This document shows, piece by piece, positions 8,136 through 63,743 of a stretch of 64,000 nucleotides of DNA (position 1 is its first letter; each line of letters begins with the position of its first letter). A program made the translations under genes and the position numbers. The stretch is from positions 992,001 to 1,056,000 of the forward strand of contig JARGXX010000080.1 in assembly GCA_030374765.1 (NCBI GenBank), given 5' to 3'. Source of the DNA: Agarophyton chilense (lineage: Eukaryota > Rhodophyta > Florideophyceae > Gracilariales > Gracilariaceae). The notes beneath the pieces are model-generated. The model was not told the DNA's origin, searched no databases, and saw only the letters and a program-made list of their open reading frames with translations.

Positions 8136-8193
8136 GAAACCCCTGCTCTTAGTATGGAAGAATCAGCCGCCCAAGAATATCCCGAACGTTAAT

Positions 8194-15192: not shown

Positions 15193-15207
15193 TATCCCCC
15201 CCCCTTA
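15193..15207 (-). other. Gyp1 polypurine tract
   Basis: On the minus strand this reads AA, then nine G, then ATA, directly against the LTR end, as expected for the plus-strand primer of an LTR retrotransposon. Confidence 0.75.
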
Positions 15208-15363
15208 AGACAGGGCGAACACCTCGAAGAGGAAGTCGGCAAGGAAGCTCGTCATGATAAGAGCGCGTCCGACACCGGGTCTCCGGAAACCAACACACCT
15301 TCACCAAGGATCCCACGCCAGCTCTTCGCATCCGATTCCAACCACAGCACACCAACATGCACC

Positions 15364-20300: not shown

Positions 20301-20765
20301 GTCGCAGTAGTCACATCCCAGTATAACTGGCGCGGCCAGCGAGCGGCACACAATAAAAGTTAGTTTAACCACCATCCGCCCTAGCCTGACGACCAGGTAT
20401 ATCACACCAACCGTTTTCAACGGGTTGTTATTGGCGTCTGAGACGTTGGGTACCGTTTCAGAACGGATGAGTGACCGCAATGGCGGGGGTAAAACCGATT
20501 CCACAATAAAGTTCGGCCCAGCACCTGTATCCAGGACAGTGAGACATCTCACCATAAACTGCGTGTGCAGACCAAGGTCAGCGTAAACCTTGTAGTTACG
20601 CTTGGCCATTACCAAGACTCTATCCGGGATCCGGTTATTTCTAATCCGTATCCACGGTCGACGCAACACAACAAGGTGTTTAGAGTCCGCGTCTGCGGTG
20701 TCCTTCCTTGTCAGGATTTTCACCCGGGAGCGAGGCATCGGCGCCTCGGGCGTCGTCAGCCTCAA
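17349..20765 (-). CDS. Gyp1 pol: protease, reverse transcriptase, linker, chromodomain
   Basis: 1,138 codons open. An aspartic protease (LTVLDTGAGPNFI, then VILGCDYCDRFV) lies at about residues 75-165. The reverse transcriptase is at about 400-640 (SPWASPVV, YPIPRMDECIDSLG, YWQVPV, YLDDIIVFS). A long Pro/Ser/Thr/Arg-rich linker follows. A chromodomain lies near the end (YVLDRIVGHSYDEYGVLQY, then W.GY.PEWDT), the mark of chromoviruses, where it directs integration to heterochromatin. The start shown is the first in-frame start after gag. Confidence 0.88.
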   Translation of the reverse strand: MRLTTPEAPMPRSRVKILTRKDTADADSKHLVVLRRPWIRIRNNRIPDRVLVMAKRNYKVYADLGLHTQFMVRCLTVLDTGAGPNFIVESVLPPPLRSLIRSETVPNVSDANNNPLKTVGVIYLVVRLGRMVVKLTFIVCRSLAAPVILGCDYCDRFVNAIRPRLKQVELEDGSTVPIVRQPLKRASKKHVPLPAAQEPTPANRDSTKLRVASSVTIPPESQVMVSVNSRQHGLRVVQPLPSLYEKFQLTVANGIVQVTPNSPFRVLVANMGKAPQTLARNQVIGSVTPHPLAMLPTKVTAAEVFGITPSTEDGLPVSGAETSGEAQQLALDKTVKTDAFPTSSVPTPDTRAQPTRYDKIDPIKALEDLDLSHVPVSHRDRLCGMLREFTTMWDGSLGEINTTEHRIDLLQDARPVAQPPYRAGPKAREEEEFQVDKMLRAGVIQPAQSPWASPVVLFLKADVTWRFCVDYRRLNAVTVRDTYPIPRMDECIDSLGDATVFTALDANWGYWQVPVREEDRDKTAFVCHSGSYRFKRMSFGLTNAPATFQRTIDILMSRFKWRTCLVYLDDIIVFSRNLDDHLTHVRDVMTVLRDAGITLKLRKCEFFTDTVKYLGHVIRPGRLMIEQVHIKSLCEAKEPRTQTELRSFLGLVNVYRRFIPSFSDIAAPLNALLRKGQPPKLAPFTTDQSESFRSLIKVAPRPVVVPHPSRGLSDIPTLSEPPAMPETPGPRGQLPLRAPRSGIYTRPAVSPPSPVAPSKEGEGNRSIAEASPSQRKFNRTPRAGPPSGQPASSPDANPLPRDAAVNPTATQPRKGKQGAGRPEAGKRDPTDAPHRVEATEGSPHIRGRTPSVSVDTGTPAGAAQAGLASHSVENGTNPMGEKGRKDKSKTAFLAEQSEPTVRDGPTTRPQGHVTRAGDRTNGHPASRSLADSHPAEADRRDGEPLTAHGAPHSGNCPPMGTPHAANQAEASGEPSPRREDPRKLAVREDFREAPTAQRKHNPAAPATSAKRYGSPGNPATSAKRYGSPGNPATTADWNDKPGDPEQATTSPAPRGAEARVTTTRQGRQVYVQEYVLDRIVGHSYDEYGVLQYRTRWYGYGPEWDTPEPIEHLPRSALMLYHRLAGTAFPATLVNAQEE

Positions 20766-36749: not shown

Positions 36750-36974
36750 AGCCGACCAGGGAGTACTCGCCTCCTTGTTCCCGCGCTTGGAGACGCAAGG
36801 TCTTGATAAGGACTTATCATCATCCGTCGAGCGAATTGCATCCGTCCGTTGGAAAGCGAGTACAGTTTGACTGTGAACTAAAATGTCTTTGGAAACGTTA
36901 TACTTGTCCGTAGAAACGGGAAAATTTTAATATGATAATGCAGAAGAGGAACTATAAATTTCAAGCCGACATCG

Positions 36975-36995
36975 TCTGTGTTCTCGGAATGCTAG
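36975..36995 (+). repeat. Left terminal inverted repeat
   Basis: Mirrors 46,428-46,448. Followed by GCTAG copies at about 36,991, 37,004, 37,012 and 37,059. Confidence 0.8.
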
Positions 36996-37227
36996 ATAAG
37001 TGTGCTAGACAGCTAGTTTTGTAAATAAAAAGCCAAAAAATCTAAGAATTTTGCAGATTGCGCTAGTCCGGCACCTGAAAAAAAAAATTTTTGGAAATAA
37101 GAACTCCATGCATCTTAGTGTTTTGACCACTTAATGCAGTTTAATCTGCATTTGCAGTTTACTGGTCACTTTTGACCGCTCTAGGTGGACATCCATACCA
37201 AGGCAGTCGTCAGTACCTTCTACCTCC

Positions 37228-37887
37228 TTACTGGCCCTTTTGCTTACTAGGCTCCAGCGTTCCACCGGGAGGGTATTTGAGGTTGAAGAAGTCCACCACC
37301 GCATTCTCAACCTCGTCCACCTCCCCACTGCTCAAGTTCCTCACACCCGGCTGCCCCACCACACACACATTCCCACCCTTCGCCTCCACATCCTTACCAA
37401 CCCTCCTCTTCTTCAGCCGACTCTCTCCAACTCCTCCCCCTTTCCATTCCTCTCTCCCCTTCTTCATCCCACCCGGCTCCCCGCGTCTCCCTGGCGTCAC
37501 CGGCCACCCTTTCGATCTCCCCCTCTCCTCTCCCACCTCCTTCAACACCTTCCGCGCACCCCAAATCTCCCCCACCCTTTCCATGTGCACTTCCAACACC
37601 TTCATACGCCTCTTCAGTTCCTCATTCGCCCTCCACAGCTTCCCCATCTCCAGCCCCATGCATTCCACCATCCCTTCTATATGATCCCTGGCCATCTTTC
37701 CAGCTAGCCTCACGCCCCTCCGAGCGTTCGATATCGCCTCCAATGGCACCCCACCCTCCGACGCACTCAGCACTACCCCTCCCAACTCAGAAACAAACTC
37801 GTAAATGCAGTCATCCACCTTCTCTTTCAATCCACCTCCAAGCTCCCTGATGTCGTAATCTTGATATCTTCGACAGTTGTCATTCAC
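37228..37887 (-). CDS. Unknown basic coiled-coil protein of the TIR element
   Basis: 219 residues, uninterrupted. Residues ~15-60 are helical and mixed; residues ~75-120 (GMVECMGLEMGKLWRANEEL, then KRRMKVLEVHMERVGEIW) form a coiled coil; ~120-175 are Lys/Arg/Gly-rich and likely disordered, with a nuclear-localisation-like LKKRRVGKD. No known family. An accessory DNA-binding role for the transposon is possible but is only an inference. It is the gene nearest the left TIR and is convergent with no neighbour; the dioxygenase-like gene lies upstream on the same strand. Confidence 0.55.
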   Translation of the reverse strand: MNDNCRRYQDYDIRELGGGLKEKVDDCIYEFVSELGGVVLSASEGGVPLEAISNARRGVRLAGKMARDHIEGMVECMGLEMGKLWRANEELKRRMKVLEVHMERVGEIWGARKVLKEVGEERGRSKGWPVTPGRRGEPGGMKKGREEWKGGGVGESRLKKRRVGKDVEAKGGNVCVVGQPGVRNLSSGEVDEVENAVVDFFNLKYPPGGTLEPSKQKGQ

Positions 37888-38046
37888 TATGAGAAAGTGA
37901 AAGCAAGTGCTGCTCTCACGTGTTTCAATCCAGTTGTTCAGGAGTTTCTACTGAAAGACGACTGATCACTATTACAAGAAAAGGGGACTACTCCACATAT
38001 TACCTCAAATTGTACTCTTTATTGTTCAATAGGTAACAGATACTAT

Positions 38047-39054
38047 CTAGTCGTCGTCGTCATCCATTATCATACCGCCGTCTTCATAGTCTCCATCTGT
38101 GTTAGCCGAGTTGAGACCCATCCCAGGTTCATCATCCTCGTCCCCACTTTCAACAACTTCCATTTTATAATCTTCATCCAACTCCTCATCCTCATCTACC
38201 TGGACGTCTTCATCATCACCCTTGTTGGAATCATCCTCTTTGAACTTAGGCCGAAATGCTGGTTGCCTATGCACTGCGTCCGGTAGCTTGTACCTATCCG
38301 GTACCAAGTACATGTGATACCTCATGCAAACTTCCTTAACCAATGCATCCTCGTATCCAGCTCCAGCATGAAACACATCTCCTCTTCCAATAAAAATGGA
38401 GTACGGCGGAATCCTGAACTTCCTCACTACCATCGTCCGAGACAGCCGCTTCAAGCTCCTGTCGTCGGGCACGTACATGTTATGTGACCTCTCACAAACC
38501 CAAAGCATAAACGAACTCGCTCCCGACGCCATCATGAAGAACCCTGGAATCTCTCCGACGTTCTTCTCGGCATCGGTCAGTCCTCCAAAGTCCGTATGTA
38601 ACACCTGCCTTGGACAGCCCTCCGCCGTACACAGCACTCGCCCCCCTGTTTCAGGGGCATACATCCTCTTCTTCCCCGACCGGTTGTTGCACAACCGAAG
38701 AGCGGCCGCAATCTATCCAAACTTCGCATCCAACAATGCCCTTTTCCTCATCATTAAAACGTTGTTCTTATCCCCTTCCACAGAATCCACAATCCCCACC
38801 TTCGTCGTAATGTACCGCCCAACTCCCTTCATTCTATCTCCCGCGTCTCTCTCCTCACCAACGTTGTTTATAAGGTCCCCTTTCTTTCTATTCCCTTCAA
38901 TCGTCAAGTCCGGCTGGTTCAAGAAATCCGTCTGGAAGAACTCTAGCAAAGTCCCAGTCACATCCCCATCGAAGTTTACCCCCCTCTTCTTCGCCTCATA
39001 CGCCATCCCCTCTTCCCTGGCAAACTCTTCCAGCACACAAAATCCTTTCTCCAT
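38047..39054 (-). pseudogene. Putative Fe(II)/2-oxoglutarate dioxygenase, acidic C-terminus
   Basis: One frame runs from ATG 39,054 to 38,047 (335 codons) with a single TAG at 38,713-38,715. After it come RQVLHTDFGG (HxD, possible iron ligands), PGFFMMASGASSF, then FIGRGDVFHAGAGY (second His) and CMRYHMYLVP (Arg as possible 2-oxoglutarate contact). The order HxD...GDxxHAG...RxH fits a double-stranded beta-helix dioxygenase fold. The last ~70 residues are almost all Asp/Glu. Family members oxidise varied substrates; TET/JBP relatives act on DNA methyl groups. The substrate here is unknown. The TAG makes this copy a probable pseudogene unless readthrough occurs. The assignment rests on motif spacing only. 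Confidence 0.55.
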
Positions 39055-39346
39055 CAGCTCACTTCACTTAGTCGAGAAGTACTCGCGGGCCAAGTCCTAT
39101 CCCCACCAGCCAGATTGTTTCCCGATGTAGCTTTTCGCGGAGTGGCACGTGGAGTACCCCGCGGAGTATCCCTCGCTTTCGCTTTGCCTCGAGTCATCAT
39201 TTGAATCGGATCATAGTCATTCGAGGTTGCAAATGGTCGCAGAGCGCTTTGAACCTTTTATGGTATACAGACTAAGACGTATTGGATCGAGCTCCTTTGG
39301 TGGCGACTATCCGGAACACTCCCGAGAGCAGTTCGTTGCAATCAGC

Positions 39347-39398
39347 CTGAACTACGTCCGCTTAGTTTCAACCTGAGCTACGTCCGCTTAGTTTCAAA
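39347..39398. repeat. 26-bp tandem duplication in the divergent promoter region
   Basis: Two adjacent units, CTGAxCTACGTCCGCTTAGTTTCAAx, differing at two bases, between the divergent dioxygenase-like and methyltransferase genes (gap 39,055-39,581). They may be regulatory sites shared by both promoters. Confidence 0.7.
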
Positions 39399-39581
39399 CT
39401 CAAGAAACTCCTTGCCTCTTTCCATCGCAAACACGCCTATTGGCTTGGTAGGCGATACAAGAAAATAAAATTAAAAAATTAAAAATATCCTGACGGCCGA
39501 CACAGGTGCGCTCCGACTTCATCGGGGGTCCCGATGAAGTCCCCGCGCACTTCTGTCCTCATTTGTATTCAGTCGGTCTCT

Positions 39582-42193
39582 ATGGAGAAGAGAAGAGTCT
39601 CCCGTACGCGAAGAAAGCGGGACAAAACCTACGATACGCCATTTTCGAAGGTGGCGATTTATGACAAACCAGTAGCTCAGCGTGTGGGCTTTGGTGTGCA
39701 GCTCGTCAATAACGCGTGGGACAGCTTCGCCCAGTATTTGGAATTCCCTGGCGTGGAATTCATGGGTTTGCCCTTTATCCATCTACGATATTCTGATATG
39801 CAGTTCCAGGCAATCGGAAACAGAAGGGATGGGTTCTCGCACAAGGACATGGCCCAACGACTCCTTCCTGGTAGAAACCGTACTTTATTGGAGGAAGATG
39901 TCGTCCCATGGGCGTGGAACCTGCCGGAGTACGTTGACACTCCACTTCGTATGTTGGCCAAAGAGTTTCTCGCTGACCTACACAAAGTGGTGGTGAATGA
40001 GCAGCTTTACTCTATATCAGCTCCGGAAAGATGGGACGTTCTAAAACCGTTTACATACACTTTGCCTAGAGTGTTTGCGGAGAGATTCGACTGCTTCTCG
40101 AACTCTCTTATCTCTACCATCTCGGAATACATATCGCCACTAAAGCTGCGAGGGAGTGTGGAGGTGGAAGTGGTGGCTGCGACAAAGGCGGAACCTACTA
40201 TGGTTATGGAAGAAGACGAGATAGAAGTTGTACCCCCTGAGAAAGATTCGGAGGCTCCGGCGGTGGAGGGTGGAGAGGGAGTGGAGGGTGGAGAGGGAGT
40301 GGAGGGTGGAGAGGGAGTGGAGGGTGGGACCGGGAATGAGGAAGAGAACATGGGTGTTGGTCAGCATTCTTCCACAGCTGGACCAAGGTCGGTCGAATCT
40401 GAGTCGGTTGATATTCTGCCGCCTCACGACCTTACCTCTCTGGATGATATAATGTCTCTCCAAAAGTGCGAGTCGGAGATGGATAAGCACTGTCGAATGT
40501 ACAATTGTACTTTCGAGAACCTGGTGGTGATTGACTAGACATTGCGCAGCAATGGGGTCTCTCCGATAGGGAAAGTGCAGTTGGTTCTCACGGACCCGCC
40601 GTATAATATACGTGCGAAGAAGAACAAGAAAAACAGCTGGTACGACGTTCTTAACCGGCAAGACATGTTGAAGACGGCGAAGCTCATCTCTAAACTTCTG
40701 CGTCCGGGTGGCACTTCGTTATATTCTGCGCAATTGAGCAGGTGAACGAATGGAAAGAAGTGTTGGGTCGAATTGGTGCAAAGGATGAGAATGGACAGAA
40801 GAGCAGGTCGTTTGTCGTGGACAAGGTCCAGCTGCACTTCATTCGCTCTCAAGGCAATCCGATGCGTAATCCCGGACGTAGTTCGTGCTCCCTGTTTCCC
40901 GGAACAGAGTAAGCCATTCATGGAGTTCGCAGCGGGTTGTCCTACGCCGAACAACATGGCATGGTGAACTATGAGAACTTCAGCTGTGTACCATCGCGAT
41001 ATCCGGGTTACCATAGCGTGATTGACCAAGTGCCTCCCATGTCGAATGGTGAAACACTTCTATGGAGAAGGAAGAATGCCAAAGGAGCAGTTATGTATCA
41101 GAAAGTGCGGGCGGAACAGAAGTCACGCGCTTTGCTGAAGGAGCTCATCAGCAGGTTTTCTCAGCCGGGAGACATAGTGGTGGACCTCTTCGCCGGAACA
41201 TTTTCAACGGCCATGGCATGAATGGAACTGTAAAAGCACCGTCAGTTTCTAGAGTGTGAGCCAGATCCGCAGCGCTTTGCTCATGCGAAGCACGCCGCTA
41301 CAGTGAAATTTGCGTCATGCATGCGGAACAACGAGACGGACATTCATATAACGCAAGATGTTCGGAACGCTGTGATTCGAGTTACATGCTTGTTTCCGGA
41401 CGTCGTCATAAAGCGTTCGAAGTCCTGGAAAACACCAACCGGATTTCCCGAGCATCAGATGTTTCCACCCCATATCGTGGATTTTCTCTCCTCCATGTGG
41501 CAGGATAAGAATATATCGGAGATTGGGCGACGGCAGGCGCTGTATGAGTGGCCAAGAAGTTTTCAAGGAAAGATGTCACTGTTGGATTGGAATGCTATTC
41601 TGGCAGTGGAGGCGGTAGTATGTGGTTGTCCGATTGCAAAGTCGACGATAAGGCACCCGAATGCTGGAGTTGGTGTGTACACAACACGCCGGGTGATACA
41701 AGGTGAGACTGTTTGTTACTTTTAAGGGACTTTGGTGTACCATGATCTTTCAAAGCGGAAGGAAGTTCATAAGGCATACGGAGGGGGGCTATTATAAGCG
41801 ACTGCTGATCGTTTTCGGCAGTACGCGATGGAGATAAGCGTCTGAGGGGAAGTGTTTCACAAGCTACCAGGAAGAATTAGTGGGGTGTCTCTTATTCCGG
41901 TGTGGATTGTCCCTGCTCCATTTTGCTTTGGGGGAACAATTAACGACCCCAAGTATGTGGAAGGGGATAGGGACAGAGATGCGGTTGAAGACGGGTTAAT
42001 GAGACGCCGAACTGCAAATGTTCGGGTCATCAGAACTCCGGGGACGGGGCGGACCCCATTTCAGTTGAGAGAGTATAGATTGCTTTCTGTGCAAGCAATT
42101 CGAGATATAGAAATAGGAGAGCAGCTGTTCGCCGATTATGGGACAGAGTATATCTGGAGTATGAATAACACGCCAGTCATAGTAATCGATTAA
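39582..42193 (+). pseudogene. DNA methyltransferase (DPPY, beta class) fused to a SET domain
   Basis: ATG 39,582 (alternative 39,534). Residues 1-~200 are an unknown N-terminal domain, then an acidic stretch with an 18-bp repeat array. Motif IV, LVLTDPPYNIR, lies at ~40,573, then LLRPGGT. After a one-base frame change near 40,716 the rest is all in one frame: VQLHFIRSQGNP, then motif I, GDIVVDLFAGTFSTAMA (41,170-41,220). DPPY before FxGxx is the beta order of N6-adenine/N4-cytosine methylases. The same frame continues into a SET domain: STIRHPNAGVGVYTTRRVIQ, GTLVYHDLS, then AIRDIEIGEQLFADYGTEY. In-frame stops occur near 40,537, 40,910, 41,219, 41,231, 41,723, 41,800 and 41,843. So the copy is decayed, but the layout shows one methylase-SET polypeptide. 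Confidence 0.75.
40263..40327 (+). repeat. 18-bp in-frame tandem repeat (VEGGEG units)
   Basis: About 3.5 copies of GTGGAGGGTGGAGAGGGA encoding VEGGEG units in the acidic linker of the methyltransferase gene. Confidence 0.85.
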
Positions 42194-42517
42194 AAGTGCA
42201 TCGCTTTTGTTACTTTACTTCATTGTAGTGTACCAGATATTGTGGGCTTTTACTATGTTTGTCGCTACATATAACGTCAAAGCGTGACGTAGTACATATG
42301 CTTAAGGAAAGTCATGTACACCGAAGGAGAATTCTTTTCCAATATCTGGTGCGTTCGAGCGCATATTTAAAATTGCTGAAAAGTTTGGGGGTTTTCTGAG
42401 AACACGAAAAGGGTGGAGGTATATTTTTGGAAGCAGAATGTTTCGAAGCTTCTCTCCCATCCATCGCATTGCAACGCGTGGAAGACCATACCACGATCGC
42501 TCTCTCTCTCTTTAACC

Positions 42518-44271
42518 ATGGCTCCGAAGCGTAAATCGAGAAGCGAGAACACTAGCGGGCGCGGTATAAAATCACGGCGGCATGGAGGGGATGCGGAGGG
42601 TGGAAGGGACAAGGGGCGTAGGCTCCATGGCGCGAGTGGAGAGAAGGGAGGCGTGCGCCTGAGAGGTAGATCAAGGCAAGATGGTGGGGAAGGAGAGGCG
42701 AGTGGGGGCAAAGGAAAGGCTGTTCGCGCAAAGGAGACAGTGACGGAGGAGAGTGCGGAGCAAATCACGTCGCGTACGGAGCAAATCACGTCGCCTACGG
42801 GAGAGATGGTGCGGAGCGGCGATGGAAAGAGGGATGGCGTGCGAAGCAGCGGCACGCGTGTACCTAGAAGTGGATTGCGGGGGAGGGCGAGAAGAGCTCC
42901 AGGGAGGACAAGGAGAGGGGATGCATCCGAACGGACTCTGAGTGCTGTACTCACGTCTTCAGCTGATGTGGAGCCGGTAAATCCATGCTCTTCACCTGAA
43001 GGAGGTGAAGAGATTCCGAATGAGATGATGAAGGGGCGTAAGGAGGGAGAGAGAATGATCGGAGAACGTGGATCCCGCCTCAGAGGCGTTGAAGAAGCAG
43101 GGGCATCGTTTACGGGTATGAGGGAAGAGGACGGTGATGATGAGATACAGAAAGGGAGAATAGAGAATAGCCGTGGTGGGGAGGGTAGAATAGGTGGACC
43201 TAGTAGTGGTCTAATCGCGGGCGCAAAAGTCGTTCGAGAGAGAACAGAAGGAGAGAGTGTTGGAGTTGCCGCGGGGGAACAGGCGGAAAGATGGGAGGGG
43301 GCGAACGTGGATTACGTGGAAGAAAGGAGAGAGCGTGCAAGGGAAAGAATGGGGAGTGTTCGAGTTACAGGAAGAAGAGCGATAGACGAAAGGGAAAGCA
43401 GAGAAGTGCATGTGAGTGAGGGGGGGAGAAGGGGTTTGCTGGAGGGAGAACACGTGGTTCAGGGGAGGAAGGCGATGGAAGAGCAGCAGTTCTTTCTCAT
43501 CAGGGAGAAGATGTCGAGCGTTTGCCACCGAGGAGAGGGGTGGGTTCGGGAGTTGAAGGTTTTGAGGTGAACGCAAGGCGAAGGACGCCGGAAGGTATAC
43601 CAGTAAGGAGAAACATTGTATTCACATGGAACAATGATAACGGGGAGAATGCGAATTTAAATGTCGTGGGGAACGCCGTCCGTATAGTGGAAGATGAAGC
43701 AAATGATGATGACATAGGTTTGTTGTCGCGGTCGATGCTAATTGAGAAGATGAATGTTTTGAAGGGACAAATGGGACGTATGAAGGAAGACAGCTACAGT
43801 GTGATGGTGAGTTTGAAAATGACCCAAACGGAGCTGGATCGGGCGAGGGAGGAAATGAAGCAGCAGAATGTGCTGATTGAGAGTTTGAGGGAGGCGTTGA
43901 AAGGTAGAATCGATGGGGAAGGGAGGGGGGAGGGAGGCGTGACGCGGCGACGAAAGTATGACATTGGAGTGCAGGAATGCTTTTATGGATTTGCACGTCT
44001 TTTGTATGATAGGATTCTTCATTATGCAAAACTGGAGGCATCGGAACTTTGTTTCGATACCGAGAATGTGGGTCGAAGCTGGAAGAATAGAAGTGAGGCG
44101 GTTGGGGAGAGTAGGGAGGAAAGTATTTTTGTGGTGGGAGAGAAGGAAATGGTTCCGAGATGTCCAATTGAGGTTGCATATGAGATGAGACCGTATACGC
44201 CGATGGCGGTGAGGATGAAGTTGGAGTGCTTGAGGATGGAGGTGCGGACGGAGTGGAAGGAACGGCGGTAG
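42518..44271 (+). CDS. Basic disordered protein with C-terminal coiled coil, one intron
   Basis: Start ATG 42,518 in the context ACCATGG. Exon 1 42,518-43,411 (298 codons) joins exon 2 43,504-44,271 through a 92-nt intron with donor GTGAGT and acceptor TTTCTCATCAG; the junction keeps the frame exactly, giving 553 residues with no stop. Residues 1-~300 are Arg/Gly/Glu/Ser-rich with several nuclear-localisation-like clusters (MAPKRKSRS). Residues ~360-430 form a coiled coil (MLIEKMNVLKGQMGRMKED, TQTELDRAREEMKQQNVLIE). No known family. It is the best-preserved gene of the element. Its end overlaps the transposase end tail-to-tail by about 250 bp. The intact intron shows the element is adapted to a splicing host. 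Confidence 0.65.
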
Positions 44272-45935
44272 TTTGTGGAGCTGATGGTAGTGAAGAGGTA
44301 TTCTGATCTGAGACGTTCGATGGCGGCGAGCTTGATGAGTTTGGAAACGCCGAGGTGGAAGTTGTGGAGGGGTTCGAAGGGGAAGATGTTGTATGAGGTG
44401 AGGAGGGGGGTGATGTTAAAAAGGGGTAGGACTCGAAGAGGGAGGGGTATTTTGCGAAGGAGAGGGAGTGGAGTGCTTGGAGAGCTTGTTCCTTGAAGTT
44501 GCGCGAGACTCTTGGCTTGCGGGCGAGGAGAGCTGCTTCGGAGTCCTTGAGGAGGGAGAAGTGTTTGTTGCGGGCTGCAAGGGTGAGGGGAAGAGATCGA
44601 GGGGGATGGGCGTGAGAGTGTTGGTGGAGTTGTGAGCGAGGGACAGAGCATCTGTGGCAGGGGTGCTGGGGGCGGGTGCCGTGGGAGATGGCGAGAATAT
44701 CCTTTGCCTCGGGAATGTCTTCGCAGTAGCTGGCGATAATGGGGTGGCATTGACGAAGAACGCCGTCTGCGTCGCGGAAGGGGAAACCGGGGAGGGCGGA
44801 AGAGAAGAGAGGTTGAAGGAGGGAGGAGATGGTCTGCTGTATGAGTTCCATTTTTGTTTGGCGGGGGATGGATGAGGAATGAGTGATGATATCTGCATCT
44901 GGAGAAGGAGTGATTGGGGTGAAGGAGGTGGGAAGATAGCCGAGGAGTGTGAGATTGTCGGAGATGCATTTGCGGCGAAAGGAGTCGGAGAAGTTGAGAA
45001 GGGTGATGTGGAGGGGATAGGAGGTGATGGAAGAAGATTTGAGAGAGGTAGAGGACTTGTCGGAGTAGATTTGGACGAGGCCGATGAAGGAGTCGATACC
45101 GGTGGAGTGAGGGAGATGCCGGACGATGTTATCTTTTGTGGACTGCATGATGGCGGTCTTGAGTGCGGGGACGACTTTTGAGCCGAGGGTGGCTGCCATG
45201 GGGTGTGCGAAGGCGGGGGAGCCGGAGGCGGATGTTTGGGAGATGGGGTGGAAAAAGGTGTTCTTGAAGTGTGCGAGGGCGAGCTGTTGTTTGAGGACAT
45301 GGATTGCGTCTTTCCGGAAGAGGGTTGCGGAGAAGCGTTTGTGGTGATCGAAGATGGTGGAGGGGGCGAAACCAATGGACGTGATTCTCTGGTGGAAAAG
45401 GTCTGCCTTGAGCTCGAGGCATTGCTTTGCGGAGGAGACTGAGTTCCGGAATGTTGATTCGGAGAAGTGGGGATCATTAAGGAGAGTGATGAGTTCGTCA
45501 GCCTTTCGTTGTCCAAGCTTGGAGGCGATGGAGGAGATGTATAGGACTATTTTCTCCAGGTGGGGGTTGTCGAGGGGGGGAGTGGAAGGAGGGAGGGGGG
45601 AGACAGCGAGAGAGGAGGGGGAACCGAGAGGGGCAGTGGCAACGTGGATGGCGTCCTGGGTGTAGAGGGAGAGAGAGAGCTGGTCTTGAAGACAGGAGTC
45701 ATGGTGTGCGAGAGGGACGTTGTCGGAAGGGCGATGTGAGGGAGGAGGATGAGGGGAGAGTTGGGAGGTGGACTTGTGGCGTTTTGTGCGGGGGGGGGAA
45801 TTTGGGTTCATTTCCGCCAGGGGAGAGGAAGCGCTTGTTGGCGGAGAGGCGATGAGGGCGTCTTCTCTGGTGCCGCTGGAGGGCGGGAATTTCTTGGGCG
45901 AAGAAGGAGCAACCGTTGAAGCAGCAGGAAGGCAT
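44022..45935 (-). pseudogene. Plavaka-like DDE transposase
   Basis: ATG at 45,935 in context CCACCATGC. A zinc-finger-like start, MPSCCFNGCSFFAQEIPALQ then RHQRRRPH, is followed by a helical region (LEKIVLYISSIASKLGQRKA). The core has LVQIYSDKSSTS (first catalytic Asp), YPLHITLLNFSDSFRRK, LLGYLPTSF, PIIASYCEDIPEAKDI and a CHRC zinc pair. Then comes FNITPLLTSYNIFPFEPLHN with LGVSKLIK. This is the order of Plavaka transposases. The frame changes twice, once at a G9 run (45,790-45,798) and once by the homopolymers at 44,405-44,426, and returns to the first frame; sequencing slips there are possible. The long C-terminal region usual for Plavaka is not clear. This protein defines the element as a cut-and-paste DNA transposon. 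Confidence 0.65.
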
Positions 45936-46427
45936 GGTGGGTGGAGGAGAGGTGGTGGGAAAGAAGTTGGTAGGGGGCGTAGACGGAGAGAGAGTATGGC
46001 GCACACAGGGAACGTGACAGGGGAGGGCGGTGGAGAATAATATAGAATGCAAGGCACGTGAGGTCTGCCAGGTCGGGCTGCGATTCTATTGCGATTGATA
46101 TGGATGGTACTAAATGTTCAATTTCTATTTTGAGGTCCATTTTGGGACCGGTTTTTTGTACTAATCTTTCAATCTAGAGCGCACAAAGATTGAGTCTGTT
46201 CCTGCACGACTTCTCTACTTTTACCTTTAAACTGCGGCGACAGAAAGATTCACGCTAGTTTTACCTCCATCAAAACTAGAAAAACTGCAGATATGTGCTA
46301 GTTTTCCTTCCCATACAAACTAGCACTAATGAACGAATGAAAATATTTTCGGAAATTAACACCTCCAAATTTGGATAAATTCACGGGTTTTTGCGTCATT
46401 TCAATTCGTCCTTTTTTGACCACTGAA
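45936..46427. other. Right subterminal region of the TIR element
   Basis: About 490 bp between the transposase start and the TIR. It holds GCTAGTTTT at ~46,254 and ~46,301 and the inverse AAACTAG at ~46,277, 46,317 and 46,426, candidate transposase-binding sites, and probably the transposase promoter. Confidence 0.6.
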
Positions 46428-46448
46428 CTAGCATTCCGAGAACACTGA
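46428..46448 (-). repeat. Right terminal inverted repeat
   Basis: Reverse complement of 36,975-36,995 with one mismatch. Confidence 0.8.
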
Positions 46449-46471
46449 AGATCGGCTCGGACAAGTATTTA

Positions 46472-53568: not shown

Positions 53569-56500
53569 TGTCAAACATTACAGTAGAAATAGCCAGTATT
53601 TAGGGAAAGCAAAGAAGAGCTCGAAGTAAAAGGTCCGGGTAGAGTCTTCCTCTCACAGGTTATGCGCCCACGCACCCGCTGTGGCAAACCCACACAGCCC
53701 TAAATCGCACACACATAACAAATCCGCATACCATACAACGCAACACGAATTCTCCAGATCCCCGACTCCTCCGCCGTCAAAGACGGCAGCACGCAGAACA
53801 CCAAAACACAAAGACATAACACAACATTACACAATGGAGCACGAAAGACAACCCAGGCTCCCAGAACTACACAAAGCCAATTATGCACCATGGTATCTCG
53901 CTCTTGAAACACACGCAACAACAATCGACGCCACAGAACATCTTTCCAGCAATCCTTCTCTTCCAACAGATCCAGCAGATCTCAGGCGACACACACAGAA
54001 CAAGTCCAAATTACTCTCCGCCATACTGAGCAGCGTACCATCCGACATCCTCGGACTGTTACTAGTTCCGGAAGACCGACGCACACCACACGACCTCGTC
54101 ACCGACATTATATCTCACATCGACCAAGCTACGAAAGACGACCACAACTTCTTGAAAATGGAAGACGAAAGTATCACTTACACTCAGGACACCACCATTG
54201 ACAATTACATCAAAGCGCACACCGACCTTCGACAAAGAATGATAGCGGCACGCTATCCCAACATCAAACAAGAAGAGACAACTGTCGACTTCATAATCAA
54301 CGGACTCAAAACGAACACAGCCCTCACTCCTATCATTGCACCCATCTTGTTACAAAAATCAACCACGATCAAAGCTTTTCTCATCAGCTTCAAACAACTT
54401 CATTCATTGTTTCAACCCTCGCACGCCCCCACTTCCCAATCTTCAGCACCCAAAACGTTCCCCGGGGACTACGGGCCCCAAAGAAGCACCGGGGACTACT
54501 ACGCCAGGAGCAGAAACCAATTCCGCCGCCCGTATCGCACATATCGCAGAACGGCATACACTCTATGACGCCTACCCCCAGGGTACTCACCGTGCAAATT
54601 CCATACCAGCCTCGGAATCCCATCGATGCACACTGACGAAGAGTGTCAAGATCGCAGGCATCCCAAAGCTCAGCCAAAAACACAAGCCCAGATGGCACAC
54701 ACCCAAACGCCACCACCGCCACATACCTATGGCCCGCCCCCAGCCTATCAGCAGCAGTATGGGGCAGTCTCCGCATCAATGCCGTACAATGCCTCACACA
54801 GGGAAGAGACGGAATCCGGAAATGGAACCCAAAGTACGTTCATCCTCGATAGCGGCGCGACACCCTCCCATATCGCACGACCAACTTCCGCAATGACGAA
54901 ACTCAAACACCCCACACTGACCACCACTGCGACCAACTCCCAGACAAGGTGCATGCATCATGGGACGATCCAGATTATCCCCAACAAGACTGAAAAAGTC
55001 ATTCAAACCAGGGCAGTGGCCAACAAACACATACAACAAAACCTACTATCAGTCCATGATCTCACAAAAAATTATGGCCTAGTAGCCTTCACACCACACA
55101 TGGGATACATCATAGACACCCATCACCGCCCGCCCCAAATACTACCACAAGCATTGTGGATTAAATCGCAATACCAAGTTAAGGGCACACTCGTAGATCA
55201 AAACCAGGCGCACACAGCCCGAACATTACCACGTAAATCACGGGCAACAAGCAAAACCAAACCCCCCCCCATCTACCGTAGCCCAGAAACGACCAACAAC
55301 AACCAAAGCGAGCAAGCCAGCATCTTCATTGCAACAAGCAGCCCCCTCCACCAACCCTGCTGCACAACCCAAAACAACCACACACTCGCTTCACCTCCTA
55401 TCCAACCCCAGAAAGCATAAACAGCAGTCATACGATCACTTGCTGGCTCACGACTGGCACATACGCATGAATCACGCTCACCCATGGAAACTAGCACTAA
55501 CGGCCAAACAAAGACTACTCCCCACAATGCCGACACCCTTCCCCACAGACATCAAACTCTCCTGCAGTGCATTTCATCACGCCCAACTAGCCCCCGCACC
55601 ACACAAACCAACAAGCCACACATATCAGGTGGGAGCATACGTCAGCTCAGACACTTGTGGACCAATCAAACCAACGTCCAAACATGGACACAACCACATA
55701 CTCCTGATCACCTGTGCGCGAAGTCGCTTTACATTTGCCCATTTTGTCAAAGACCGCAAGGACATTCCCACCTACATCAGCCAAACACTCGAACACATAC
55801 GCCATAAAATGAAACACCCGCTGACATACTTCCGTGCGGACAACGCCAAAGAGTATACATCATCAACTATGCAACAAATATACCAACAGCACACGGTGCA
55901 ACTTCACCTCCGCACCCCGCATCAACCGCAAGAAAACTCAATCGCTGAAAGGCTAAACAGAACAATTATGAACTCAGCACAATACCAATATATGCCCCCA
56001 AGAGCAAACTAAATCCAAGAGCAGATCCGGTCCGGTACATGTACCCAAGATCGCACAAACACATCGTGGTACTCAATCTCAAGACGCACCAATACCAGAG
56101 CATACGAACCAAGGACTTTCATCCATACCACAAATACAAGGACCCCACAGCCACCACCACATCAGCGTTTAAGGCCAAGACCCTACCGCGACCACACCTC
56201 CCCACGGAAATCCGAATCAATACACCCCCCCCAGCCAACCTGACACAAGCCCGACAATATCCGGACGCAGCGCAATGGCAAGAAGCACATGATCGTGAAT
56301 TGAACAACTTAGACCAACACAACAGCATCAAATGGCTCCCAAATACATTCACACCACCCAAAGAAGCTATCATCCCCCTCATGATGTTGTATCGTTACAA
56401 ACGTTCAGCAGAGGGGCACATCGTCCAACGGAAAGCCAGATGCAAACTCCGAGGCGATATCATGAAACCTGGCCTCCGATCCAAAGCATATCACCACTAA

Positions 56501-57965
56501 CACCGCCGACCGCACCACCCAGCGGATGTTAATCGCCTTACACGCACGCCCCAACATGCCATTAGAGCACTTTGACATCACATCAGCATACTTGCATGAA
56601 AAATACCAACACACCCGTCCAGTCTACGTCAGGCAGATGCAACGTTTCAGCGGTAGCTACGCCCATAACAGCAAATATGGGCAACTCTTGGGCAATTTAT
56701 ACGGATCCCCGCCGGCGGCATTCTATTACAATCACGGATTAAAGTCGTTTCTCATCCACTTGAACTTCACACCCTCCGACCACGACCCATGCCTTTACGC
56801 CCGTCACAATTCAGACGGAGTCATATTAATCAGTACCACCATTGACGACTTTTTAGTACTAGCCTCAACCCAGGATCTCATCAACACACTCTACAAAGAA
56901 CTCCTCACGAAATACAAAATCAAAAGACTAGGGAGACCCACTCGCTTCTTAAACTGGACCATAACATACGGCGACGATGGTTCGGTGCACATAGCACAAC
57001 CGGATGCCATCGAGGCCCTCCTTGCGCAGACAAAAACGAGCTCCTGCAACCCAGCTGCAACACCATACAACAATCAAAAAGCGTTAGATCAGCTACCGGA
57101 AACAGAACCACTACCAGAAGAACAAGCCGCCAGATACCGCTAGATCTTGGGAGAAATTAGGTACATAAATGACAGCACTCGCCCAGACATTACTTACGCC
57201 ACCAATAGACTGGCAAAACACATGGCACACCCCCAAGCGCACCATTGGCAAGCATTGAGGACGCTTCTAAGATATCTGAAGGGCACCAAAACCCACGAGC
57301 TGCGATACAATTCCAAACACATCACTCGAACCCCGCTCACAGTGTTTAGCGACGCGGGCTTCGCAAACGAGAACAACCGACGATCAATCACAGGAACACT
57401 TCACTCCGTCAACGGCACACCCATATCATGGCTTTCCGAACAACAGAACATCGTTGCCCTCTCGACGACGGAGGCAGAATATATAGCGGCATCCAGTGCC
57501 ACTCAACACACGCAATTCCTTAGAAATCTCCTTTGACCAACACACCTGATGAACGAAAACCCCACGCCGCACTTTATAGACAATCAATCAGCCATCCAGA
57601 TGCCAAGAATCAAGCTCCAACCAAACGACGGAAATACATAGATCTTCGACATCATCATCTCCAACACCACATCGCAGAGAACGCAATCCACCTACACAGA
57701 ATCCCAACCGCAGAGATGACCGCCGACATACTCACGAAACCCCTCCACCGAGACAGATTCAGGAAACTACGAGACCTGCTCCAAGTACACCCCAACCCGA
57801 ACAAAAATGTGACGCATCAACCGGGGACTGTCAAACATCATCATGACCGACATCTTGATGCGCCGCATTTTTCGGATGTCCAACATTACAGTAGAAATAG
57901 CCAGTATTTAGGGAAAGCAAAGAAGAGCTCGAAGTAAAAGGTCCGGGTAGAGTCTTCCTCTCACA
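53569..57965 (+). mobile_element. Copia LTR retrotransposon with very short LTRs
   Basis: LTRs of 89 bp (53,569-53,657) and 137 bp (57,829-57,965), both TGTCAAACAT...CTCACA and seemingly identical where they align, so the insertion is recent. Perfect target duplication GGCAC (53,564-53,568 and 57,966-57,970). A PBS-like GGTTATGCGCCC follows the left LTR and looks complementary to the anticodon region of initiator tRNA-Met, as in Drosophila copia. It contains gag, protease, integrase, RT and RNase H. Broken, with about six breaks. Low-GC-skew, A/C-rich coding strand unlike Gyp2. Confidence 0.9.
53681..57937 (+). pseudogene. Copia gag-pol (plus-strand element)
   Basis: Gag at 53.7-54.6 kb (WYLALETHATTIDATEHL, DFIINGLKTN). 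Protease with FILDSGATPSHIA at ~54.84 kb. Integrase at ~55.4-56.0 kb (DHLLAHDWHIRMNH, FRADNAKEYTSS, PQENSIAERLNRTI). RT at ~56.2-57.1 kb (FDITSAYLHEKY, GSPPAAFYYN, TIDDFLVLAS). RNase H to ~57.5 kb (FSDAGFANENNRRSITG, STTEAEYIAASSA). The order protease-integrase-RT is diagnostic of Copia. The reading frames are broken. Confidence 0.88.
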
Positions 57966-58511
57966 GGCACCCCGCAGATGGTGCGGGAAGTGGTATATTA
58001 CACGTGGGATCTTGGCCTGCCACGTCGCATCTGATTTGACCCTTTTGCAGGGAAATACCGGATTGGCAACGGCGCATATAGTGAATATCCCCGTGGCATT
58101 CAGGCCTACCCTTCGTAGGCGAACGCCCATTTAGAGCTATTTATCCCGTACTGTAGAGGGGTTCTTCGGCTAACCAAGTTAGATCTAGATATTATTATGT
58201 GCTGCGCTCACCCTTGTACACCGTACCTACAGCACAGAGGGGAGCGACGAATCCAAAGTGAAAAAGACAACAAACGGGTGCTCAACAGTCTTGTTCCTTG
58301 TTCAGGATTCCTTTACCGGAGATCCAGAAAAGCTACAACAAGTGGTTGTCAGTTCCATAGTATCAACCACCTTCATTGGCAAGTGGGGCCTTACAACCCC
58401 ATTCTGGCTCGCTAGTGTCGTGCTCTACCACATCTTTCCCTTAGTCGCAAGCACCCATTCGGCAGTCTCGAACACTGTCGCAGGTGTCTGCTCTCTCCAT
58501 TAGAGCTGATA

Positions 58512-59657: not shown

Positions 59658-61943
59658 TCAGAGATTTCGTAAAATGTCTGCTCGGTTTTTGGCAGACGAG
59701 ACATGATGAATTGAAACAAACTGGTTATGCACGGCATCCAATACATGATGATGACGAAGTTCAATGTGTTTGACCTTGCGCATTCCAAAGTCGGTCTTCG
59801 TCCAAGATAGGGCTCCTATGTTGTCCTGATAAAATGGTACAGGATTATGCAAATTGATTCCAAGTTCACAGATAATGCTCTTAAGCCAGGACAACTGTTT
59901 GATACATTCCGAAATTGCGTAGAACTCAGCTTCCGTTGTTGATAGAGCCGTAGACTTCTGCATTTTTGAGCTCCAAATCACAGGAACGTCACCAATGGTT
60001 ATAACAAAACCTTCCCTTGAACGACGTTTGTCTACATCACGACCCCAGTCTGCATCTGACCACGCGGCTACAGTAGTGGACGAAGAATGCGGAATCTCTA
60101 AACCGTACTTGACAGTCTGGATCAGATAACGCACCACCCTTTTCATACAATTCCAATGTTGAGGCAAAGGATTAGAAGCAAATTTGCCAAGCATGGAAAC
60201 TGCTGTGGCGAGATCGGGTCTTGTGCGCGTGCTCAAAAATAATAAAGATCCAAGTGCTTCTTTGTATGGTAAAATCAACATAGAGGTCTTTTCGGAGTCA
60301 GTAGGAGCTACTACTGCATCACGGAGACAATTCGTTTGCGGCAGTGGATACGATGACGGTAACGCTTCATTCAGACGACACATGTTGATGATTCGCAAAA
60401 TCAAAGGACGCTGATGAAGAATAATTCCCGTGGGCTTCTCTTCAATAGAGACTCCAAGATACAAGTCGGTTTTCCCTAGATCCAAAATGTGGTAATGTTC
60501 ACAAAGCTTCTTTTTGACCCATTTTGTCAGATGAGGAGAGCCAAAGATGTTGAGATCATCTACGTATGCCAAGACAACGGCCATATCGTCACCTTCCTTT
60601 ATTATGAAAACGCACTGTGCTGATTGCACTAGTGTAAAGCCAATGGAACATAGATAAGCAGATAAATTATCAAACCAGAGTCTTGGGGCCTCCCTTGGGC
60701 CATACAGGGACTTCACGACTTTGACAATTCGTCCATTGGCTTCGTCCCCTCCAGAAATAATAGTGAGTTTGATCCAAACTGGAATGTCCGCAGGCATGGT
60801 TGCATGAAAAAAAGCACCCTTTCCATCGATGTGTTGAAGATCCCACTTCAAAGCCGTAGCGATTACTAGTATCACACGAAAAACTTCAAATTTTAGCACA
60901 GGTGCATAAAGGCTGTTTGAATCGGAAATGTGTTGGAAACTTCCTCGAGCAACCAATCTGGCCTTAAATCGAACAGGTTTTCTAAGGTGATCTCGTTTCA
61001 AGCGGAATATAAAACCTGAAGGAATGGGTTGACCATGGTTGGAAGAGGCGTCTTCATACGTACCCAATGCACGAATTGTTTCGAGTTCTGCGCGAATGGC
61101 ATCCATCCAATGACACGCTTCAGGGGAAGAAAGTGCCTGCTTCAAGGTAAGTTCGTCTGTAGTGCTGATCGTGTCCGGAAGAGTACGGGCTGCATTAACA
61201 GTCTCGTCTGCAAAGTCAGACGGGTACCCACCTAAGTCGAGATCGTAGGTGGAAGGATTCTCGGGGTAGTGAGTGAGTCCACTCAAAGCACTGCATGTGG
61301 AGTCCTTCGAATCATTGTCAGTTTCATTGGTAGAGACAAATATGTTTCTGGGTTCTGATCCTGTATCATCCTCATTATCACTTGACTCATATCCAGCAGA
61401 AACAAATTCTGAAGTGAATCTTGAATGAGGTGATGTCTCATTGACAAGTGATAGGCCTGTAAATTCTTTTTCAAGGAAACGGACATGTTTGGTGTGCTTT
61501 ATTCCATCTCTTATGAGTGTTTTGTACATTCCACCACAGATATGTCCAAGATTGATACCTTCAAAAAGACCAGATTCCATTTTCTTCTGAGTATCTGGAT
61601 TAGATTCGACAAGCACTCTCCAGCCAAATGTGCGGAGGTGTTTTACATCATGGGGAAGCTCCCCAAATAAATAGACAAAGGGGATTTTTCCAGTGTTGTG
61701 ATGAATCTTCACGTTTTTGCAGATTACTGCGTGGCGTAGAGCCTCCTGCCAGAATGAAAGAGGAAGGTTGGCCTGTTGCAAACATGCACGAATTGGTCCC
61801 ATGGGAATGATTACGTTTCTTTCGGCCAAAGCATTGGATGACGGAGAGTATGCTGAAGTTGTAGTGATTTCGATGCCGTCGCGTTTTAAGGCCTTCTGCG
61901 CCTTGAAAAACTCTGAACCACCATCTGAATGCAAGGACAGCAC
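59658..61943 (-). pseudogene. Copia pol: integrase end, RT, RNase H
   Basis: 761 codons open: integrase end (SLHSDGGSEFFKA, SPSSNALAERNVI), linker, RT (DGKGAFFHATMPADIPVWIK, KSLYGPREAPRLWFDNL, LAYVDDLNIFGSP), and RNase H (AWSDADWGRDVDKRRSREG, ALSTTEAEFYAISE, KHIELRHHHV). The element as a whole is broken upstream of this frame. Confidence 0.87.
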
Positions 61944-62210
61944 CGAATGTTCCGAATCACGTCCAAACTATTTGACAAACTCTATGATGATAGCGGAGGC
62001 ATCAGCTTTTCTGACGAGAGGTGCAGAGAAAAGGTATCGAGTGCACTCATCAACGATGACCAAATAGTAAGCATGTCCCCTATCAGAATCAGTTCCAACG
62101 TAGACGATATCCGTGTGAAGGTGACCTGGTGGTGACGCTGAAGTGAGAGAACCATTAAAACTTCGACGAAACTTTTCTTGAACACAGGGGATACACTCCG
62201 GTGTTCGGTT

Positions 62211-63743
62211 TCAAAGAATCGGAAGTAGTTGCTTTTGAAGCAAAATCTTTACTTCTGACTTTGTTGCTGTGTGTCCAAAACGATTATGCCAAAGGGCAAC
62301 ATCTCCTGCCCGAACACTTATATTTTGGGCGTTATTAGAAATATTGATTTCCTCGGTGACATCTTTAGATGTAGAGTTGTCTTCCGTGGCTATGGAAGAA
62401 GCAGAATCTGGACCTGAAGCGCATTCCGAGTCCGAGTCAAGATCACTGTCAACAGGACTTGCTAAAATGTCCTGTACACGGGGCATCATAGCGGACGTTT
62501 GCTGAGAGAGATGAGACACAGTCGAATCAGTAGCTGTTGAGCAATCTACAGTAATGTAGTACAGCCCATCTGTACTGCGTGGAGCGCTCCCAACAATTCG
62601 TAGATCGTCCATAAGATCAATAATGTGCCCAACCTCTGGAAGGAAAAGAACAGCTAGCTTCTTCGCCGTGAGTGCGGGAATCGATAGAAGATTCATGGCA
62701 ATGTCCGGGGCGACAAGTGTGTTGCTAAGAGTAACCATGGTGGTCACCCCACCGTGTGACCAATTCACTGGCATCACACCTTTCTCTAACGCCGTGATTT
62801 CGGAGTTGTCACCCAATACTATCGGAACATTACAGTTAGAGCTTCTCTCAAGCTGGTTAGAAAAAGAAGTCAAATGAGCCGTCGAACCAGAGTCCAGCAT
62901 CAAAACATTGTTTTGGGGAGCTCTGGCAGTCATGGCATATGCTCTTGATACGGCGGCACGATTCGTGGGTTTCCGGTTACCTTTAGAGACCTCTTCTTTA
63001 CAGTTCTCATTCTGGTTTTTATCCAATAGATCGTCAGACCGTTTGAGAAGATTCTTTGGATTCAAAGGATTCAAGTAACACCGAGCAGTTGTGTGGTTCT
63101 CTTTGCTGCAAATAGCGCACTTTGGGCTGGCAGCCGTCGCTCGCTCGGAATTGTGTGTGTCCATTGTTCTGACTTCGTCAAGCAGACGAGAGGCAACACA
63201 TTCCCAAGTCGTGTTTTCCGAAGATAGGGTTTTAATTGCAGCACAAACAGGATGGAGCTCAGTTGCGGAGATGGAAGATACCAAGAGAGCTACTGAGTGT
63301 TCATCCGGAAGTTTTGTACCCATTGCTGCCAGTTGGTCGATAACGCCAGCCATTTTATCAATATGGCGGCCAATATTCTGTTGGATGTTAGAATACCGCA
63401 TGTTGAATAGCACGCACATCTTCACAATGCCAGAAGCTGCTGGTTTCGACGCAAAGCGGTCGTCTAGACGTTTCAGCATTTTGCACGGGTTTGCAATGTC
63501 GCCCTGAACGACGCGCAGAGCTTCATCCAAAAGAGCAGAGACAATCAGTCCACTAGCTCTCTTTTTACTGAACTTCCACTCGGCTTTCTTCTCTTCATGT
63601 GAGGTGAAGTGATTTCTAACCTGGCAAACAACTTCGCAGATTTTTTTTGCTTGACAAGCGGAATCGATTCTAATTCGCCACAATTTGTAATCATGTTTCT
63701 CTTCAAAGGATTGAATGCGTATCTTTAGACTTTCTGATTCCAT
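62211..63743 (-). pseudogene. Copia gag, protease and GAG-pre-integrase region
   Basis: 510 codons open from ATG 63,743: a UBN2-type gag domain (residues ~1-200), a zinc knuckle CAICSKENHTTARC, the protease MLDSGSTAHLTSF at residue ~280, and ALWHNRFGHTATKSEVKIL (pre-integrase) at the end. It belongs to the same broken element as 59,658-61,943. Confidence 0.87.

What the first reader, a model, noticed from the sequence alone, without database searches (positions are those of the whole stretch)
36975..46448. A DNA transposon carrying a DNA-methylation and chromatin toolkit
Seen: matching TIRs, a worn 6-bp target duplication in a retrotransposon, and between them a Plavaka-like transposase, a beta-class DNA methyltransferase in frame with a SET domain, a dioxygenase-like protein (HxD...H...R pattern), and two basic coiled-coil proteins. 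Known: DNA methylases occur in some eukaryotic retrotransposons and TET/JBP oxygenases in KDZ DNA transposons. A Plavaka-type element with a methyl writer, a possible histone or protein methylase and a possible oxidative eraser together is not something I know as described. Inference: the cargo may mark or unmark element DNA to escape silencing or to time excision.
Basis: partly seen in the sequence, partly recalled or inferred. Interest (0 to 1): 0.88.

Follow-up and report, generated by a model that had tools for sequence, protein, structure and literature searches.

The report
Transposon carrying a DNA-marking gene module
A broken copy of a jumping gene in a photosynthetic eukaryote turns out to belong to a family of larger elements that carry genes for marking DNA and chromatin, and a related gene pair also sits near chromosome ends, which suggests that selfish DNA has its own kit for labelling itself.

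Summary
The finding is real and larger than the window shows. The window element (36973-46450; about 30-nt TIRs, 2-bp AT duplication) is a dead, internally deleted copy of an 18-19 kb Plavaka-type family with at least 40 matches to each end in this genome. A full-length copy (C10) has open genes for: a 1043-aa bacterial-type (beta-class, DPPY) DNA methyltransferase fused to a SET domain; a divergently transcribed 1247-aa protein with a ParB/Noc-like half and an HxD..H..R oxygenase-like half; and the transposase. Tandem palindromes lie between the first two. Of 21 listed methyltransferase copies of this family, 19 have Plavaka 4.7-5.0 kb downstream. The same divergent pair, with other palindromes, recurs in a second, RecQ-helicase-bearing element: 28 of 31 copies lie within 50 kb of a contig end, one shown next to telomere-type repeats. 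The pair seems linked in another organism too (P0001/P0017). Best mechanism (inferred): the ParB-like protein loads on the element's own palindromes with its oxygenase, MTase-SET writes adenine and lysine methylation, giving sequence-specific anti-silencing, as VANC does for VANDAL. Activities are untested; the oxygenase call is motif only. New variant of a known kind.

The parts
36973..46450 (.). Plavaka-type DNA transposon, internally deleted copy (9,478 bp) of an 18-19 kb family
   Evidence: TIRs; shared termini in the copies compared; co-linear alignment to 18.1-18.7 kb copies with gaps
36971..36972 (.). 2-bp target duplication AT, left
   Evidence: size of duplication from empty sites of other copies
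46451..46452 (.). 2-bp target duplication AT, right
   Evidence: size of duplication from empty sites of other copies
36973..37002 (+). left terminal inverted repeat
   Evidence: arms 36971-37002 / 46421-46452; 40 of 121 candidate matches to this end scored, all matching, window included
46421..46450 (-). right terminal inverted repeat
   Evidence: 40 of 135 candidate matches to this end scored, all matching, window included
37228..37947 (-). left coiled-coil-like ORF, 239 aa, no family
   Evidence: ORF; no Pfam match
37660..37848 (.). about 190 bp that stand where E79-type copies have a 2.9-kb segment with two ORFs of unknown kind
   Evidence: window-relative 690-878; E79 923-3842
38047..39063 (-). 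remnant (about 31%, 2 stops) of the 1247-aa ParB-like/oxygenase-like protein; the oxygenase-like half with HTD and GDVFHAG is what remains
   Evidence: ORFs 38047-38712 and 38713-39063; coverage and stops; full-length copy L037:3783-7526:-
39096..39097 (.). internal deletion junction: about 2.5 kb present in full-length copies is missing (ParB half)
   Evidence: window-relative 2126; E79 5104 to 7624
39499..39557 (.). single worn palindrome, relic of the array between the two divergent genes; the next 1.4 kb of E79 (8111-9489) is missing after it
   Evidence: inverted repeat I2, 28-nt arms, 82%; below the 14-pair threshold, which shows the arrays in other copies; gap
39483..42193 (+). broken methyltransferase-SET gene (1043 aa in the C10 copy)
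   Evidence: PF01555 9.1e-8, SET 0.013 in the window; 7 stops and 2 frameshifts against the C10 copy
40593..40604 (+). catalytic motif IV, DPPY
   Evidence: read from the sequence; DPPY in 8 of the 13 public homologues that hold the motif, DPPW in 2, DPPF in 3
41180..41209 (+). motif I, VDLFAGTFST (AdoMet binding; function of the motif recalled)
   Evidence: sequence; alignments
41639..42180 (+). SET domain region (broken)
   Evidence: below cut-off in the window; 3.3e-5 in L022
42380..44271 (+). basic coiled-coil gene, probably one gene in two frames here; 3' part deleted
   Evidence: ORFs; one frame with a single stop in E79
44200..44201 (.). internal deletion junction: about 2.6 kb missing, removes the 3' ends of the coiled-coil gene and of the transposase gene
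   Evidence: E79 14106 to 16694
44201..46117 (-). truncated Plavaka transposase (about residues 1-627 of 1137 remain)
   Evidence: PF18759 2.7e-21; full length in L038:4919-8332:-; motif positions

Best explanation
What it is (shown by sequence comparison): a Plavaka-type DNA transposon of 18-19 kb whose fuller form carries a two-gene module with a cis array: a ParB-like/oxygenase-like protein and a methyltransferase-SET protein, transcribed away from each other across tandem palindromes. The window holds a dead, deleted copy. The same module is carried by an unlike element near contig ends that has a RecQ-type helicase. How it most likely works (inferred): the ParB-like protein binds the palindromes, which are nearly confined to the element family, and loads onto or spreads along element DNA, bringing the tethered oxygenase-like domain to remove a silencing mark. 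The methyltransferase-SET protein writes N6-methyladenine and a lysine methylation on the same chromatin. The element thus keeps its own copies in a permissive state without disturbing the rest of the host genome: sequence-addressed anti-silencing.
Confidence: 0.5

Rival explanations
1. Maintenance or mobility module: ParB plus palindrome array act as a partition-like, telomere-protecting or transposition-control system, and adenine methylation times replication or excision (as hemimethylation does for some bacterial and plant transposons; recalled). The SET domain methylates an element protein or histone as part of this.
For: ParB/Noc-like fold and palindromic array; on C95 the second family lies next to telomere-type repeats, and it carries a RecQ-type helicase.
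Against: Window-family copies are dispersed, 13-884 kb from contig ends (11 of 12 looked at, those with known contig length), with no need for partition once integrated; oxygenase-like half unexplained.
Confidence: 0.2
2. Self-restraint: the module writes repressive marks on its own copies, limiting damage to the host.
For: SET similarity includes EZH2 (3.5e-5); the copies compared are mostly decayed and the family looks like one past burst.
Against: A paired eraser-like domain would be odd; no repressive mark shown; 6mA is linked to permissive chromatin in the species studied (PMC12695648, passages).
Confidence: 0.13
3. Self/non-self modification, as in phages: the methylase protects element DNA against a nuclease.
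For: Best phage-family match is a DNA methyltransferase family; phage multidomain polyvalent proteins are described (PMC5512222, title and start of abstract in the listing only).
Against: No nuclease domain matched in the proteins scanned with Pfam, several of which match nothing; does not explain SET.
Confidence: 0.07
4. Passenger genes without a role in the element's life, carried by one amplified master copy.
For: Star-like divergence among copies and neutral decay; deleted copies also exist.
Against: Both genes, their divergent order and a palindromic gap are kept in a second element family that differs at 65% of MTase-SET residues, and the pair seems linked in another organism.
Confidence: 0.1

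Closest known systems
TET-bearing Plavaka and other TET-bearing DNA transposons of fungi (Kojima 2025, PMC12730594; abstract, introduction and passages seen)
   Same: Plavaka-type transposon with 2-3 bp duplications carrying a DNA-modification enzyme thought to counter silencing
   Different: There a TET/JBP oxygenase; here a methylase of the beta class fused to SET, plus a ParB-like/oxygenase-like protein of no recognised family, plus a palindrome array; host photosynthetic by its chlorophyll-binding genes
HarbingerS and MuDR elements with SET genes (cited in the introduction of PMC12730594)
   Same: DNA transposons with a SET-domain gene
   Different: No DNA methylase fusion mentioned in the passages read; other transposase superfamilies
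VANDAL/VANC anti-silencing (PMC10398659, abstract and passages)
   Same: Element-coded protein and element-specific tandem repeats in non-coding DNA, different in each family
   Different: VANC is not described as ParB-like or as an enzyme in the passages read; no methylase-SET partner
Plavaka giant repeats of Amoebidium (PMC11244446, section 7)
   Same: Large clusters of intron-poor genes next to a Plavaka transposase
   Different: Up to 50 kb, many tyrosine recombinase genes; no methylase-SET or ParB module in the section read
Bdelloid rotifer N4CMT (PMC8885841, listing only; solved as 8s9m, 8s9n, 8s9o)
   Different: Reported for 4mC (start of abstract); here transposon-borne, DPPY motif, fused to SET
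Telomere-linked RecQ helicase elements (TLH of fungi, Y' of yeast; recalled)
   Same: Second family: near contig ends, mostly inward-reading, RecQ-type helicase gene
   Different: Carries the methylase-SET and ParB-oxygenase pair

Membership tests
Plavaka (CMCT clade) | transposase of the Plavaka family | tested here: met
   PF18759 2.7e-21 in the window, 8.7e-23 and 1.4e-22 in fuller copies; cut-off 26.3 bits passed
Plavaka (CMCT clade) | 2-3 bp target duplication (PMC12730594) | tested here: met
   empty sites of four copies: 2 bp in three, 3 bp in one
[quoted passage not shown]
   CHRC at 476 and HLLDH at 754 of the 1137-aa protein fit by eye; the catalytic D, D and E were not placed by alignment
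PlavakaA or PlavakaB (the two fungal lineages) | termini TGT..ACA or CATCA..TGATG (PMC12730594) | tested here: not met
   termini are CGTC(T/A)GTGTT..AACACTGACG, so it is filed in neither; a further Plavaka lineage is possible, no transposase tree was made
beta-class DNA amino-methyltransferase | motif IV before motif I, amino-methyltransferase fold | tested here: met
beta-class DNA amino-methyltransferase | N6-adenine product rather than N4-cytosine | not testable with these tools
SET lysine methyltransferase | SET domain over Pfam cut-off | tested here: met
   24.7 bits against 22.4 in L022; 28.5 in P0001; window copy below it, 16.4
ParB/Noc family | ParB N-domain followed by helical DNA-binding domain | tested here: inconclusive
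Fe(II)/2OG dioxygenase (TET/JBP or other) | HxD..H..R triad plus double-stranded beta-helix fold | tested here: inconclusive
   motif conserved in three sequences; no family match, fold not modelled
VANC-type anti-silencing | protein binds element-specific repeats and removes silent marks | not testable with these tools
   element-linked palindromes found; binding not testable

The most novel reading that the evidence does not exclude
A mobile, self-addressed chromatin operon: ParB-type clamps load at palindromes that the element carries, spread along it and deliver an oxidative eraser, while a fused adenine-methylase/lysine-methylase writes a permissive state on DNA and histone in one step. 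The operon is shared by unlike selfish elements, a Plavaka-type transposon and a RecQ element near telomeres, each with its own address palindrome.
Probability: 0.33. Interest if true: 0.93.

Novelty: new variant of a known kind. Interest (0 to 1): 0.82.

Why it matters
Transposons with a single anti-silencing enzyme are known. Here a writer, a possible eraser, a ParB-like protein and its likely address sequence travel together, and the pair is kept in two unlike elements of one genome. If the inferred activities hold, it would link bacterial-type adenine methylation to eukaryotic lysine methylation in one protein, and put bacterial-style ParB logic into eukaryotic chromatin. The near-identical copies at contig ends raise the question whether the host uses the kit at its chromosome ends.

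Tried and rejected
Separate nested insertions: not supported, since the four copies without the module (E1, E99, E3b, E3c) resume at different points, E79 14322, 14640, 14548 and 15751. E1, E99 and E3c share a left break at about E79 923, which is also the edge of the variable 2.9-kb segment (W, E1, E99 and E135 have about 190 bp there instead), so that left part is optional.

6-bp duplication: not supported. Of 11 candidate empty-site pairs I looked at five, for four copies; the second relative of E99 is too diverged to be clear.

Viral origin: a scan of viral contigs with the MTase-SET alignment gave 17 loci, whose best segments match 34-198 residues at 25-50% identity, all within residues 21-250 of the query, so none shows the SET part. 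Prokaryote genomes: 1 locus, a 3.5-kb contig in a Moorena bin with an open 1051-aa frame; I take it for a eukaryotic contaminant, not proved; its place in the tree is unsure (long branch).

Selection within the family: no signal for the two module genes (9 copies for methyltransferase-SET, 10 for ParB-oxygenase, 12 for the transposase, many partial, with the C10 copy as reference). The transposase ratio falls from 0.83 to 0.55 in shared changes, on 20 changes only.

First search for a homologue of the 1247-aa protein over residues 250-1240 scored 7990 candidates and found none; the conserved 161-residue part found one among 83.

Structure: the fold list for the MTase-SET model is filled by the methylase domain, so SET and the N-terminal region were not tested by fold.

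Organism: 9 chlorophyll-binding matches say photosynthetic; few copies and the look of the protein suggest a red alga, by eye and from recall. The rRNA search did not complete.

That P0001 and P0017 share a contig is inferred from the same contig count (4) and longest contig (20,528); the contig was not seen.

Literature: ten searches of open PMC text; the one that asked for Plavaka, DNA methyltransferase, SET domain and transposon together found no paper, and no listed title or abstract start described a Plavaka element with a methylase-SET or ParB gene. Most subscription papers are not held. PMC9812998 (red-algal subtelomeres, passages) has no occurrence of 'helicase'.
Full report
1. Observation. 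The same ends match at 40 places each in the genome of the window, the window included; these are capped lists (40 of 121 and 40 of 135 candidates were scored). I fetched 12 further copies, 11 of them with both ends. Aligned to them, the window element (36973-46450) is an internally deleted copy: E79 and E105a span 18.7 and 18.1 kb and contain four stretches that the window lacks. The deletions took the ParB half of one gene, most of the palindrome array and about 45% of the transposase.

2. Insertion. Unoccupied relatives of the target show a 2-bp duplication for three copies and 3 bp for one, read by eye. This agrees with 2-3 bp reported for Plavaka (PMC12730594, abstract and passages). The termini differ from both fungal Plavaka lineages of that paper. 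The window copy sits in a retrotransposon whose RT/RNase H part follows at 47639.

3. Gene content of the fuller form. In the copy at C10 (L037+L038, and L061 for one gene; its outermost left 0.1 kb was not fetched) three long frames are open: a 1247-aa protein (-), a 1043-aa methyltransferase-SET (+) and a 1137-aa Plavaka transposase (-). There is also a coiled-coil gene, in two frames in this copy, and on the left a variable segment with two ORFs of no recognised family. Genome-wide, the methyltransferase-SET search listed 55 matches (53 of 195 candidates scored). By identity 21 are the window family (11 of 21 without stops), 32 belong to a second family (26 of 32 without stops) and 2 are fragments of the second. 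The search with the 1247-aa protein listed 37 matches, 95-100% identical (37 of 337 candidates scored; 12 of 37 without stops).

4. Cargo and transposase travel together. Of the 21 methyltransferase-SET copies 19 have a Plavaka match 4,740-5,030 bp downstream on the other strand; of the 32 second-family copies none does. Of the 37 ParB-oxygenase copies 32 have Plavaka on the same strand within 12 kb. Of 13 copies compared directly, 8 keep at least 83% of the methyltransferase-SET gene, E2a keeps 25%, and E1, E99, E3b and E3c have none.

7. Palindromes. The gap between these two divergent genes holds nested tandem palindromes with the core TGTCGGCCGACAGAGGTGC: 6 hits in C10, 5 in E79, 2 in E105a, and none elsewhere in those stretches; the window retains one worn unit below that threshold. 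The core occurs 292 times in the genome and its reversed control never. The first 100 places listed form 32 clusters, of which 29 lie within 15 kb of a family marker and 3 do not. Two copies without the module (E3b, E3c) still have array units, two (E1, E99) do not.

8. The second family. Its copies lie near contig ends: 25 of 31 within 20 kb, 28 of 31 within 50 kb, 27 of 31 reading inward from the nearer end; of the 4 that do not, 3 are on contigs under 60 kb and 1 lies 664 kb inside; 1 of the 32 had no known contig length. Two compared with C103 are 98.8% (C95, 10.5 kb) and 99.9% (C4, 8.6 kb) identical. Of the 20 contig starts fetched, C95 and C76 begin with telomere-type repeat. C95 opens with 2.1 kb of AAACCCCT-type repeat, then about 1.1 kb of the 773-bp repeat, a 1335-aa ParB-oxygenase frame (-), a 4.2-fold array of the 773-bp unit, and the methyltransferase-SET gene (+). 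In C103 the array holds 5 palindromes with 36-base arms (arms read from the sequence; the script scored 21 pairs), and one further unit lies at the contig start. Downstream is an 1880-aa OrsD/RecQ-type helicase frame, seen on C103 and C4. In the C103 copy the ParB-oxygenase gene is split into frames.

9. History. In the methyltransferase-SET tree the second family joins P0001, with the window family next to them (100/100 both; five of the nine inner branches of the tree are open). The ParB-oxygenase gives the same order by identity (46.5% second family to P0017; 36.5 and 36.7% for the window family). So the two lineages of the pair look older than the split of the second family from P0001's source, and both genes stayed together. 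P0001 and P0017 have the same contig count and longest contig, which I read as linkage.

10. Within the window family differences are mostly private to single copies, with N/S ratios near 1 (ParB-oxygenase 1.08, methyltransferase-SET 1.07, transposase 0.83 for private changes; only 17, 13 and 20 shared changes). This looks like one burst from a master with open genes, then neutral decay. It does not show selection on the cargo; the case for function rests on point 9.

11. Mechanism. I favour sequence-addressed anti-silencing. Shown: genes, array, near-confinement of the array to the elements, and conservation of the pair. Inferred: ParB binding to the palindromes, spreading, oxygenase action, base and lysine methylated, and effect on silencing. 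The closest working model is VANC/VANDAL, where element-coded proteins bind tandem repeats of their own family and remove silent marks (PMC10398659, abstract and passages). A fused adenine and lysine methylase would fit the reported company of 6mA and H3K4me3 in permissive chromatin (PMC12695648, passages); that paper also found that lowering H3K4me3 hardly changes 6mA in Acanthamoeba castellanii.

12. Novelty. TET-bearing Plavaka, SET-bearing HarbingerS and MuDR (PMC12730594, introduction) and Plavaka giant repeats (PMC11244446, section 7) are known, so the kind is known. The combination, the ParB half, the palindromes and the sister element near contig ends did not appear in what my ten searches listed.

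Noticed in passing
L083-L084 (C95:1-13500), L039/L040/L059 (C103:1-26500), L062: Element family near contig ends with ParB-oxygenase, 773-bp palindromic array, methyltransferase-SET and an OrsD/RecQ-type helicase; 27 of 31 copies read inward from the nearer contig end.
   Followed up: yes
L083:1-2133 and L065:1-90: Telomere-type repeat of irregular AAACCCCT/AAAACCCC units at the starts of contigs C95 and C76.
   Followed up: partly
L034-L035 (C3:203500-222800): An 18.7-kb element with the family's ends but no module: large inverted and direct copies of the palindrome array flank a different interior, part of which resembles the flanks of other copies.
   Followed up: partly
L021:923-3818: Variable left segment in some copies with two ORFs, one with a GxGxxG start like NAD-binding proteins (by eye), one membrane-like (by eye); about 190 bp stand there in the window copy.
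   Followed up: partly
L058 (3,475 bp): A Moorena metagenome bin holds an open 1051-aa methyltransferase-SET frame, probably from a eukaryote.
   Followed up: partly
window 17349-20765 (-): GC-rich retroelement with a reverse transcriptase and a sub-threshold chromodomain match.
   Followed up: no
window 59658-63743 (-): Copia-type retroelement with gag and RVT_2 domains.
   Followed up: no
window 54000-58000: Stretch with strong GC and AT skew (GC skew down to -0.42, AT skew up to 0.38), not identified.
   Followed up: no
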